Shown in pieces: positions 1 through 35,966 of a stretch of 35,966 bases of DNA. The stretch comes from a virus. The notes beneath the pieces are model-generated. The model worked only from the letters and a program-made list of their open reading frames with translations, did not search any database and had not been told where the DNA came from. Both the position numbers and the translations under genes were made by a program. Location of the stretch: positions 1-35,966 of IMG/VR virus record IMGVR_UViG_3300046009_008454; one strand, given 5' to 3'. How positions within the stretch are numbered: the first letter of the stretch is position 1; each line of letters opens with the position of its first letter.

Positions 1-125
1 CGGCGTATGTCCCGCGCTCACGTCATCCACCACAGGCTGATGACGCCAGCGAGGGCCAGCAGGATGATGATGCTACGCGGGCGCAGCACCTCGGCCACGG
101 CGCGAAGCCACATCGGAGGCTCGTC
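1..125. repeat. Direct terminal repeat, left copy
   Basis: Identical to 35842-35966. The 65-aa gene at 18-215 and the gene at 35566-35862 both use bases of this repeat and keep a normal GTGA overlap across the join. This shows that the contig closes into a circle of about 35,841 bp. A 125-bp exact overlap is the usual product of assembling a circularly permuted genome. A genuine short terminal repeat cannot be excluded from sequence alone. Confidence 0.95.
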
Positions 126-1714: not shown

Positions 1715-2186
1715 TGTAACTCCCTAATCTATCAATCAGACCCTTTGGTGAAGCCCTTGGTTTCGGACAAAGGACGACACTCCCGCGCCAAAAGGCTAAC
1801 GAGAGGCGTCCCGTGACCGTGAACGATGTTGCCAGACCCTTCGGAGCCAGCCCCCGCCTACGGACAGTTTCGTGCCATGAGCGACCGAAACCAGACCACT
1901 ACTTTTCGCGGCAATCTCAAACCGCGCTGCTCGCCCTTTGGTCATACGGACTAGGCTGGCCCTTGAGCAGACTCCCCCAGTGGGCCGAGTTACAAGGACG
2001 TGCGCTGGCGGACCGCACCGGAAGCCCCGGTTTTACGTCGTCGCCTAAAAGCCGTCTGTTGCCTTTGGAGTGCCGTTGTCTTACTTTGTGTAAGAGCGTT
2101 GGCTCTCCGCGTTGCCGCGCGGATTTTAGGAGGGACGGGGCTTTGGCGGCTCCGTCCCTTCGCCCTTAATAAGCGCCAGAAAATCG

Positions 2187-2215
2187 TTGCCGTCAAGCCC
2201 GCTTAGATGTAGGTT
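2187..2215 (+). promoter_or_regulatory. Weak candidate promoter for the tRNA-like RNA
   Basis: TTGCCG at 2187-2192 and TAGGTT at 2210-2215 are separated by 17 bp. Both boxes are poor matches. The predicted start, about seven bases downstream, falls at 2222, exactly the first paired base of the tRNA-like structure. That coincidence is the main reason for listing it. Confidence 0.25.
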
Positions 2216-2221
2216 GATCGG

Positions 2222-2308
2222 GCTGTGCGGAGACTCTTAGCTCAGTGGCAGAGAGGCCGGGGACAACCGGAGGCACGGGTTCGATTCCCGTAGGGCGCTT
2301 CGCACAGC
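2222..2308 (+). ncRNA. tRNA-like RNA with extended acceptor stem
   Basis: The element has a T arm ACGGG-TTCGATT-CCCGT (2275-2291), the D-arm signature TAGCTCAGTGGCAGAG (2238-2253) and a short anticodon-like hairpin CCGG-GGACAA-CCGG (2257-2270). These are closed by an 11-bp perfect stem, GCTGTGCGGAG with CTTCGCACAGC (2222-2232/2298-2308, one G-U). A four-pair inner stem CTCT/AGGG is separated from it by a small internal loop. A normal tRNA has a 7-bp acceptor, a 7-nt anticodon loop with U33 and a closed D stem. Here the loop is 6 nt, U33 is missing and D-stem pair 10-25 is G-A. A decayed tRNA, a tRNA mimic or a processing element are alternatives. The structure lies opposite to the surrounding leftward genes. 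Confidence 0.55.
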
Positions 2309-2414
2309 AAAACGCCACCAACCCCGAAGGACTGATGGCGTAGTGACGACGGACCAAACGTCCGGCTTAGGACAGGCTACCACCCCGCCGCCCGGTAGCT
2401 CAGGCCAGCGAAGC

Positions 2415-2897
2415 CTAAACCTTCGACCGAATCCCCGCAAGCCCCGCCGCTTTCAGCTCCCGTCCCTTCTCAACCAGTTTCCCCTTTGCATATCCTGTTG
2501 CTGGCGTAATCCATCCGTCAGGGTGGATTGTTGCCGGGTCGATATAGCTAACCACGAACGGCTCCCCGAGCGCCGCTATCAGCGCCGGGCGTTGCGGATA
2601 GGGCGGGCGCTCAACCTTCGCCACAGCCTCCGCAGACGGAAGCCAATGATCGTATTTCTCGCCGTTTAGCCACACGCTCAGGCCGCAGAAACCGCAAGTC
2701 GGTTCCTTCTCCCTCAGATACCCCCGCAAAGCCTCTAGAAGCCGCTCCTGACCGACTTTAGCGGCATGGCGGTTCCATAGCTTGCGGGTTTTGTCCTGAC
2801 CGTCTCCGCGCTTACGCATCTGGCCAGCGCGCAGGAGCCACGCCTCGTCAAACGTATTTGCTTCTCTCACGGGAAATTGTAGAATAGCTGCACCCAC
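2415..2897 (-). CDS. Protein resembling the C-terminal domain of phage replication initiators (160 aa)
   Basis: Residues about 16-90 follow a pattern common at the C-terminus of HTH-type phage replication proteins: F-D-E-A-W, then K-T-R-K-L-W-N-R-H, then LLEALRGYL, ending in a conserved V-W-L-N-G-E-K-Y-D segment. The usual N-terminal HTH is absent, so this would be a stand-alone version. GTG at 2897 is preceded by GGGAGGGAG. It is the last gene before the noncoding block. A helicase-loader or initiator-accessory role is inference. Function is otherwise unknown. Confidence 0.55.
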   Translation of the reverse strand: MGAAILQFPVREANTFDEAWLLRAGQMRKRGDGQDKTRKLWNRHAAKVGQERLLEALRGYLREKEPTCGFCGLSVWLNGEKYDHWLPSAEAVAKVERPPYPQRPALIAALGEPFVVSYIDPATIHPDGWITPATGYAKGKLVEKGRELKAAGLAGIRSKV

Positions 2898-3837: not shown

Positions 3838-4215
3838 TCAATCCTCCCAAACGCTAAACAAATTGTTCCGCTTGGCAGGCACCGGCCTCGTCTTAACCGG
3901 CTTGGGCTTAGGCGCTGGCAAATGGTCGCCACGCTGAAACGCAAGGGCTAGGGCATGGACAAAGCGTTCGTCTGCCACCCGTTGCCGTGCCTCGGTCTCG
4001 CGGTCTTTGTTGAAGCCGTCCGGGTATTTGTTGGCCAGCTCCGACCGGCCCAAGTCTTTCTGCCACGGGATGCCAAGCGCCCGCGCTCGTTCCCTTACAG
4101 TCTTTTCCGTCCGGCCCAGCTTCTCGCCAATCTCGGCGGGGGTGAAGCCTAGTCGCTTCATCTTGCGGAGCGTGTTATCTTGAACGGAAGTGAACCAGTC
4201 TCTGGGTTGTCTCAT
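3838..4215 (-). CDS. SANT/Myb-like DNA-binding protein (125 aa)
   Basis: An N-terminal SANT/Myb-like HTH occupies about residues 5-50 (WFTSVQDNTLRKMKRLG, then PAEIGEKLGRTEKTVRERARALGI). It is followed by a basic, proline-rich tail (PAPKPKPVKTRPVPAK) and ends FSVWED. A shared downstream segment, VHALALAFQRGDHLP, matches VRAVAGAIQRGENLP of the upstream neighbour, so the two are true paralogues beyond the HTH. The start overlaps the upstream stop (ATGA). Similar proteins are common in alphaproteobacterial phages and are usually unannotated. Confidence 0.72.
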   Translation of the reverse strand: MRQPRDWFTSVQDNTLRKMKRLGFTPAEIGEKLGRTEKTVRERARALGIPWQKDLGRSELANKYPDGFNKDRETEARQRVADERFVHALALAFQRGDHLPAPKPKPVKTRPVPAKRNNLFSVWED

Positions 4216-4550
4216 TTGGCTACACGGGGCAGATTTTCACCGCGCTGGATAGCACCCGCCACGGCCCGGACAAGCCGTCTGCTGCTTTCCTCAAGCCGGG
4301 AACGGTTCTCTTGCGGGAGGGCGATGTCATAGGGGCGAAGGAAACCGCCATAGGTGTCCCGCCTAAAATGAAGCCCAAGGGCCTGAGACCGTCCTTTGAT
4401 GGCCATGTGGGTCCGGCCCATTAGATCGGCGGCTTCCTTCCGAGAGAACCCGGAAAAGGCCAAAACTCGCAAGAGTTCGTCCTGTTCGTTATCCCATCCG
4501 TCGCCATAGTTAGGCGCGAGTTTCCGTGCTGAATTGATCGGCGCTGTCAT
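4212..4550 (-). CDS. SANT/Myb-like DNA-binding protein (112 aa)
   Basis: The HTH spans about residues 17-60: GWDNEQDELLRVLAFSG, then RKEAADLMGRTHMAIKGRSQALGL. The C-terminal half contains a helix ending AIQRGENLP that is echoed in the next gene product. ATGA overlaps occur at both ends (4547-4550 and 4212-4215), so it is translationally coupled between the HNH gene and its paralogue. It is the first of three consecutive copies. Target and role are unknown. Confidence 0.72.
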   Translation of the reverse strand: MTAPINSARKLAPNYGDGWDNEQDELLRVLAFSGFSRKEAADLMGRTHMAIKGRSQALGLHFRRDTYGGFLRPYDIALPQENRSRLEESSRRLVRAVAGAIQRGENLPRVAK

Positions 4551-35569: not shown

Positions 35570-35862
35570 GATGCTTCTCCTGTGGCTTTGGCGATAGCGG
35601 CGCGGGCGCGGTCAAAGGCATCCGTCTTGCGGTCGGCAATAGCTACGACCTCGATCAGCGCCTCCAAAAGATCAGGAGCGGAGGCAATAAGGCGGGCGTT
35701 GGCTTCGCTTTCTTGGGAAGCGGGCGCAGACATGCCACCCCAGTTGACAATTTTTTTCGGCGTTGGTCCGCGCTTTCCGGCGCTAATGCCATACGGGCGC
35801 TGTCCGTGACGCTCGCTAGTTCTGTCAATCGACCAAGGCCCCGGCGTATGTCCCGCGCTCAC
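35566..35862 (-). CDS. TPGPW-type phage accessory protein (98 aa)
   Basis: The family pattern HTPGPWSIDRTS lies at the N-terminus, with NARLIASAPDLLEALIEVVAIADRK further on, as in many phage accessory proteins of unknown function. GTG at 35862 is chosen: it makes a GTGA overlap with the stop of the upstream gene across the circle join and puts TPGPW close to the N-terminus, as in relatives. An upstream GTG at 35874 is possible. Confidence 0.7.
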   Translation of the reverse strand: MSAGHTPGPWSIDRTSERHGQRPYGISAGKRGPTPKKIVNWGGMSAPASQESEANARLIASAPDLLEALIEVVAIADRKTDAFDRARAAIAKATGEAS

Positions 35863-35966
35863 GTCATCCACCACAGGCTGATGACGCCAGCGAGGGCCAG
35901 CAGGATGATGATGCTACGCGGGCGCAGCACCTCGGCCACGGCGCGAAGCCACATCGGAGGCTCGTC
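35842..35966. repeat. Direct terminal repeat, right copy
   Basis: Exact copy of 1-125. It should be counted once in the circular genome. Confidence 0.95.

What the first reader, a model, noticed from the sequence alone, without database searches (positions are those of the whole stretch)
2222..2308. tRNA-like RNA with a fifteen-pair acceptor and no usable anticodon loop
The element has D-arm and T-arm signatures of a tRNA, but the closing stem is 11 perfect pairs plus four inner pairs, the D stem is imperfect, and the middle hairpin has a 6-nt loop without U33. It does not decode as a normal tRNA, yet the long stem is intact, which argues against simple decay. It may be a phage tRNA mimic acting on host RNases, synthetases or tRNA-directed defences, or an RNA processing signal. 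The weak promoter call places the transcript start exactly at its first paired base.
Basis: partly seen in the sequence, partly recalled or inferred. Interest (0 to 1): 0.68.

Follow-up and report, generated by a model that had tools for sequence, protein, structure and literature searches.

The report
Phage RNA cassette holding broken tRNA
In a P22-like freshwater phage, a small RNA gene apparently with its own promoter folds into a tRNA-shaped molecule that cannot decode, clamped by a long stem; relatives use the same promoter and stem to carry quite different RNAs, so the site looks like an exchangeable small-RNA slot rather than a single odd tRNA.

Summary
The element is real. Window 2222-2308 (+) folds with an 11-pair closing stem (one G-U), a tRNA-like D region, a 4-pair hairpin with a 6-nt loop lacking U33, and a perfect T arm (-40.9 kcal/mol, z -3.2). 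ARAGORN and Rfam do not call it. In 15 related viral contigs the same spot, between a small-RNA gene and a terminator hairpin, is an indel site. Six contigs are empty there and three lack the site. The window and six relatives carry an insert behind the same promoter (-35, 17 nt, TAGRTT, +1 at the first base of the insert). The 9-12-pair closing stem is shared by five of the seven inserts and covaries (5 of 11 pairs changed on both sides), yet the inside is unrelated: two tRNA-like bodies, three other RNAs; the sixth insert lacks the stem and the seventh is a 72-aa ORF. The second tRNA-like body (L008) is a tRNA-Trp whose anticodon is deleted. So the long stem belongs to the cassette, not to a tRNA acceptor. 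Best reading: a promoter-driven, stem-closed small-RNA cassette whose cargo here is a non-decoding tRNA mimic, perhaps a decoy for tRNA-elbow-binding proteins. Decay is a serious rival. Y-RNA-like layout, but no Ro60/Rsr gene.

The parts
2187..2215 (+). Putative sigma70-type promoter: -35 TTGCCG (2187-2192), 17-nt spacer, -10 TAGGTT (2210-2215), 6 nt to +1 at 2222
   Evidence: Same geometry in all 7 insert-bearing sites (best TAGACA-17-TAGATT, 9/12), absent from the 6 empty sites
2222..2232 (+). 5' arm of closing stem GCTGTGCGGAG
   Evidence: 11 pairs with 2298-2308; covariation in 5 sequences
2238..2254 (+). D-arm-like segment TAGCTCAGTGGCAGAGA (D-loop GG kept; D stem 3 pairs in tRNA frame, alternative 8-pair hairpin in MFE)
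   Evidence: Matches 5' part of real phage tRNAs; energies
2256..2271 (+). Anticodon-arm-like hairpin CCGG-GGACAA-CCGG, 6-nt loop, no U33
2275..2291 (+). Canonical T arm ACGGG-TTCGATT-CCCGT
   Evidence: tmRNA/tRNA T-arm, E 0.0005; pair probability about 0.9
2298..2308 (+). 3' arm of closing stem CTTCGCACAGC
2312..2341 (-). Hairpin terminator of the leftward operon (13 pairs then TTTTG), directly 3' of the element on the + strand
   Evidence: retained at filled and empty sites
2166..2196 (-). Divergent leftward promoter-like site: -35 TTGACG (rc of 2191-2196), 19 nt, TATTAA; overlaps the + promoter
   Evidence: TTGACG conserved in 15 of 16 sites (TTGACC in L130), filled and empty; -10 weak
2059..2167 (+). 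Conserved neighbouring small-RNA gene (promoter TTGCCT-17-TACTTT, hairpins), 5' border of the variable site
   Evidence: pairs with two-sided changes in 10 sequences

Best explanation
The element is the cargo of an exchangeable small-RNA cassette (a 'moron'-like unit) in a family of P22-like phages. A host-type promoter starts the RNA at the first base of a conserved closing stem; the stem clamps both ends, which would protect the RNA from exonucleases; and the inside of the stem is swapped between phages. Here the inside is a tRNA body with the T arm and D-loop GG kept but the anticodon loop broken; in the closest tRNA-like relative (L008) it is a tRNA-Trp with the anticodon deleted. The RNA therefore cannot decode and, with its ends closed in a stem and no CCA end, should not be charged. 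Most likely mechanism: it is a tRNA mimic that occupies host or defence proteins that recognise the tRNA elbow (for example tRNA-targeting nucleases, which cannot cut it because the anticodon is gone, or RNase P, TruB and other processing enzymes). Shown: site, shared stem, covariation, promoter geometry, two tRNA-derived cargos that both lack a usable anticodon. Inferred: transcription, stability, protein target, benefit to the phage.
For: Stem: 5 of 11 pairs changed on both sides among 5 sequences, 96.4% paired, 0 of 500 shuffles reach this; the L132 arms pair with each other (12) but give only 4 pairs with any other arm. Promoter with +1 at the first base of the stem in 5 stem-closed inserts, same geometry in 7/7 filled and 0/6 empty sites. 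Filled versus empty sites. L008 scores 33.5 bits as tRNA in Rfam (gathering score 29) although ARAGORN calls no tRNA, and aligns best to tRNA-Trp(CCA) with CTCC, the bases holding U33 and the first two anticodon bases, deleted. Window and L008 bodies resemble different tRNAs, both with a lesion in the anticodon loop and both with T arm and D-loop GG kept. Both fold better than shuffles (z -3.2 and -3.3). Precedent for the idea: YrlA, a stem-closed tRNA mimic, is not cut by a Salmonella anticodon nuclease and was proposed as its competitive inhibitor (PMC7790460).
Against: No expression data. Only two tRNA-like members, so no covariation test inside the tRNA body. In MFE folds the D side of both (and the T arm of L008) prefer non-cloverleaf pairings by 2.5-4.8 kcal/mol (tertiary contacts are not modelled). 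Window D stem and anticodon stem carry mismatches, as decay would give. Other cargos (L010, L133) are not more stable than shuffles. Promoter score is modest in the window (7/12). No target known; host unknown.
Confidence: 0.42

Rival explanations
1. tRNA pseudogene: complete tRNA genes were once captured in this RNA slot and are decaying; only promoter and closing stem are kept because they belong to the slot.
For: Lesions in D stem (G10-A25), anticodon stem (G27-A43), variable loop and acceptor of the window element; no Rfam tRNA match. tRNA remnants are common in mobile elements (PMC9897764).
Against: Two bodies resembling different tRNAs at the same site both lost the anticodon and kept T arm and D-loop GG; L008 otherwise still scores as a tRNA. 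The acceptor has been replaced by the cassette stem rather than merely mutated.
Confidence: 0.3
2. Regulatory unit whose cargo hardly matters: the + promoter overlaps the divergent leftward promoter (TTGACG), so transcription or the stem-loop tunes the leftward operon by promoter competition or insulation.
For: + and - promoter elements overlap within 30 bp; TTGACG in 15 of 16 sites; cargo sequence is freely exchanged.
Against: Does not explain the covarying closing stem or why tRNA bodies are kept; empty sites keep the leftward promoter alone.
Confidence: 0.15
3. A true bacterial Y RNA (YrlA/Deinococcus type): Ro60/Rsr binds the long stem and the tRNA-like end binds an effector such as PNPase.
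For: Same layout: long stem from paired ends plus D-short hairpin-T module; L008 gives 23.9 bits, E 0.041 to the Deinococcus Y RNA model, window 15.7 bits to YrlA.
Against: Scores far below gathering (80 and 69 bits); no TROVE/Ro60 gene in the window genome (closed by an exact 124-bp terminal repeat) or 11 related contigs; stem is 9-12 pairs and also closes non-tRNA cargos.
Confidence: 0.06
4. Attachment-site remnant: a tRNA fragment carried by the phage for integrase-mediated insertion.
For: Related Pan3 and Pam1 carry integrases; tRNA genes are usual integration targets.
Against: Both tRNA halves are present with an internal lesion, inside a covarying stem behind a promoter; 9 of 16 contigs lack it; no integrase seen among the window proteins scanned.
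Confidence: 0.04

Closest known systems
Bacterial Y RNAs (YrlA RF02553, Deinococcus Y RNA RF01053)
   Same: Both ends pair in a long stem that presents a tRNA-like module with D side, shortened middle hairpin and T arm; non-decoding
   Different: No Rsr/Ro60 in these phages, weak covariance scores, shorter stem, and the same stem carries unrelated cargos in relatives
Phage tRNA genes (tRNA-Trp, tRNA-Asn, tRNA-Ala type)
   Same: Sequence source of the body: L008 closest to tRNA-Trp(CCA), window closest to Ala/Asn-type tRNAs
   Different: Anticodon destroyed, acceptor replaced by a stem that closes the ends, no CCA
Phage morons (autonomous promoter-gene-terminator cargo units)
   Same: Presence/absence at one site between operons, own promoter, exchangeable cargo
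   Different: Cargo is mainly structured RNA in a shared stem; classical morons encode proteins (L006 alone has an ORF here)
tmRNA tRNA-like domain
   Same: T arm and tRNA-like end
   Different: No mRNA-like part or tag, no CCA; only the T arm matches the model

Membership tests
Functional tRNA | 7-nt anticodon loop with U33 and an anticodon | tested here: not met
   6-nt loop GGACAA, no U33; no ARAGORN call
Functional tRNA | 7-bp acceptor ending in a free CCA or CCA-addable end | tested here: not met
   Ends are paired in an 11-bp stem with no CCA
Functional tRNA | Canonical T arm | tested here: met
   ACGGG-TTCGATT-CCCGT
Bacterial Y RNA | Long stem formed by 5' and 3' ends | tested here: met
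   11 pairs, covarying
Bacterial Y RNA | tRNA-like module with D, T elements and truncated anticodon | tested here: met
   L008 aligns to the RF01053 model
Bacterial Y RNA | Covariance score above family cut-off | tested here: not met
   15.7 vs 69 bits (YrlA); L008 23.9 vs 80 (Deinococcus)
Bacterial Y RNA | Ro60/Rsr partner gene | tested here: not met
   No PF05731 in the window genome or 11 relatives; a host Rsr cannot be excluded
Bacterial Y RNA | Binding of Rsr and PNPase | not testable with these tools
   Needs pull-down
Phage moron | Own promoter and indel presence between conserved genes | tested here: met
   promoter activity itself not tested
Phage moron | Own terminator | tested here: inconclusive
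   Hairpin 2312-2341 follows directly but its T run is on the - strand

The most novel reading that the evidence does not exclude
A dedicated phage locus that displays interchangeable structured RNAs on a common covarying stem, used as a slot for RNA counter-defences; the window and L008 versions are anticodon-less tRNA decoys that inhibit tRNA-targeting immunity.
Probability: 0.2. Interest if true: 0.85.

Novelty: new variant of a known kind. Interest (0 to 1): 0.55.

Why it matters
RNA-based counter-defence in phages is little charted, and annotation tools skip such elements (ARAGORN and Rfam both pass this one by). A locus that swaps structured RNA cargo in a fixed, promoter-driven stem would give a way to find further phage effector RNAs by position, and the anticodon-less tRNA cargo makes a direct test possible of whether phages use tRNA decoys against anticodon nucleases.

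Tried and rejected
Standard tRNA or tmRNA: rejected. Y RNA membership: layout alike, scores and partner absent. Search for the element by 3'-border and promoter patterns in the viral collection gave only the same family plus chance hits; L054 has a similar stem next to a terminator but lies upstream of a gene that looks like a scaffolding protein (my reading of the sequence) in an otherwise different phage, so I treat it as chance. No prophage or host found in the bacterial genome collection with the neighbour gene or the promoter pattern. The neighbour gene (2415-2897) has no relative in the phage collection. MCP-based relatives lack the neighbour gene and the promoter motif. The other cargos gave no Rfam family at gathering score and, for L133 and L011, no convincing match among phages.

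Full report
OBSERVATION. The 87 nt at 2222-2308 (+) fold as stated: closing stem 2222-2232/2298-2308 of 11 pairs (one G-U), D-like segment, a 4-pair hairpin with loop GGACAA, and a perfect T arm; -40.9 kcal/mol, z -3.2 against dinucleotide shuffles. ARAGORN finds no tRNA in the window and no Rfam family reaches its gathering score; with relaxed settings only the T arm is clearly seen (tmRNA model, 13.1 bits, E 0.0005) plus a weak YrlA match of 15.7 bits. The D-side 22-mer occurs in 7 viral contigs, always at the start of a called tRNA, and the best phage BLAST hit of the element is a tRNA-Ala of Microbacterium phage Pumpernickel (81% over 63 nt). So the tRNA ancestry is real. The four inner acceptor pairs are possible but unlikely in the thermodynamic model; an 8-pair D-side hairpin competes.

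GENOME. The window is an IMG/VR record that begins and ends with the same 124 bp, so it is probably complete. Terminase, P22-type portal and capsid, SSB, Rad52-type recombinase, two DNA methylases and HNH genes are present. The capsid is 79% identical to that of Pseudanabaena phage Pan3, but the early region differs; the host is unknown.

RELATIVES. The neighbour gene 2415-2897 (-) brought 15 related contigs. At the syntenic place the left border is a conserved small-RNA gene (missing in L133) and the sequence CGTCAA (GGTCAA in L130); the right border, except where the site is missing, is a hairpin that serves as terminator for the leftward operon. Between them: six contigs are empty (L004, L005, L007, L009, L129, L158); three lack the site altogether (L002, L003, L130); the window and six relatives (L006, L008, L010, L011, L132, L133) hold an insert. 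All seven inserts begin with the same promoter geometry, -35 (TAGACA, TAGACG or TTGCCG), 17 nt, TAGATT or TAGGTT, then 6 nt to the first base of the insert; empty sites have no such promoter. Five inserts (window, L008, L010, L132, L133; 87, 72, 121, 99, 149 nt) are closed by a stem of 9-12 pairs. Four share GCUGUGCGG/CCGCACAGC with small changes; L132 has GCUGACGGAC/GUCCGUCAGC. Five of 11 pairs show two-sided changes, with 0 of 500 shuffles reaching any of the measures. Most of that covariation comes from one sequence (L132), so it is few events, though several pairs. Inverted repeats of this size are not rare in this genome, so it is this conservation and placement, not the stem alone, that points to function. 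L011 has lost the 5' arm pairing. L006 carries instead a 72-aa open frame without a PHROG match.

CARGO. The interiors are unrelated to each other, except that window and L008 are both tRNA-like. L008 scores 33.5 bits as a tRNA (one search shows no ARAGORN call) and aligns to phage tRNA-Trp(CCA) with a gap that removes CTCC, the stretch with U33 and the first two anticodon bases, and further bases of the arm. Its acceptor is the cassette stem. The window body is closer to tRNA-Ala/Asn types and has a 6-nt anticodon loop. Both keep the T arm and the D-loop GG, the two parts that form the tRNA elbow. L010 and L133 are not more stable than shuffles, L132 is moderately so (z -2.1), window and L008 strongly so.

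MECHANISM. Shown: an indel RNA slot with conserved promoter geometry and covarying clamp; two cargos derived from tRNAs, both without a usable anticodon. Inferred: it is transcribed from 2222, the clamp protects its ends, and the tRNA body acts as a non-decoding mimic that binds proteins that grip the elbow. The nearest published idea is that YrlA, a stem-closed tRNA mimic spared by a Salmonella anticodon nuclease, could be its competitive inhibitor (PMC7790460). YrlA is described as a stem of paired ends with a tRNA-like domain that is modified by DusA and TruB and tethers Rsr to PNPase (PMC8394870). The rival that the tRNA body is simply decaying in a slot that is kept for other reasons cannot be excluded with two examples. 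A purely regulatory role at the overlapping divergent promoters is a further rival.

MEMBERSHIP. Not a functional tRNA. It works somewhat like a Y RNA in layout, but fails the score and partner tests, so it is not filed as one. The locus meets the placement and promoter criteria of a moron; a + strand terminator is not shown.

NOVELTY. New variant of a known kind: tRNA-derived phage RNA in an exchangeable, stem-clamped cassette. The literature searches returned no description of such a locus, within an open-access library only.

Noticed in passing
window 2059-2167 (+): A small-RNA gene just upstream of the cassette: promoter TTGCCT-17-TACTTT, hairpins including a terminator-like one. A related-looking unit stands upstream in all relatives but L133; 7 consensus pairs show two-sided changes in 10 sequences. 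Weak resemblance to Xanthomonas sX14 (18.3 bits, far below cut-off).
   Followed up: partly
window 2166-2196 (-): Leftward TTGACG element, conserved in 15 of 16 sites examined (TTGACC in L130), overlapping the cassette's rightward promoter: mutually exclusive divergent promoters are possible.
   Followed up: partly
L006, reverse strand, at the cassette site: Same promoter precedes a 72-aa ORF (MMEESGSP...TPPTPKD) that ends inside the terminator hairpin; no PHROG match.
   Followed up: partly
L011 8502-8763: Flanks 97% identical to the window, but the insert is an unrelated 154-nt sequence with the 5' arm altered; no phage match.
   Followed up: partly
window 1-124 and 35843-35966: Exact 124-bp terminal direct repeat: the record is probably a complete genome.
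   Followed up: yes
window 3838-4550 (-): Two overlapping short ORFs match neighbouring parts of one PHROG (phrog_323, D5-like regulator), as if one gene had been split.
   Followed up: no
window 2415-2897 (-): 160-aa protein highly conserved in 15 viral contigs but without Pfam, PHROG, PADLOC or phage-collection matches.
   Followed up: partly
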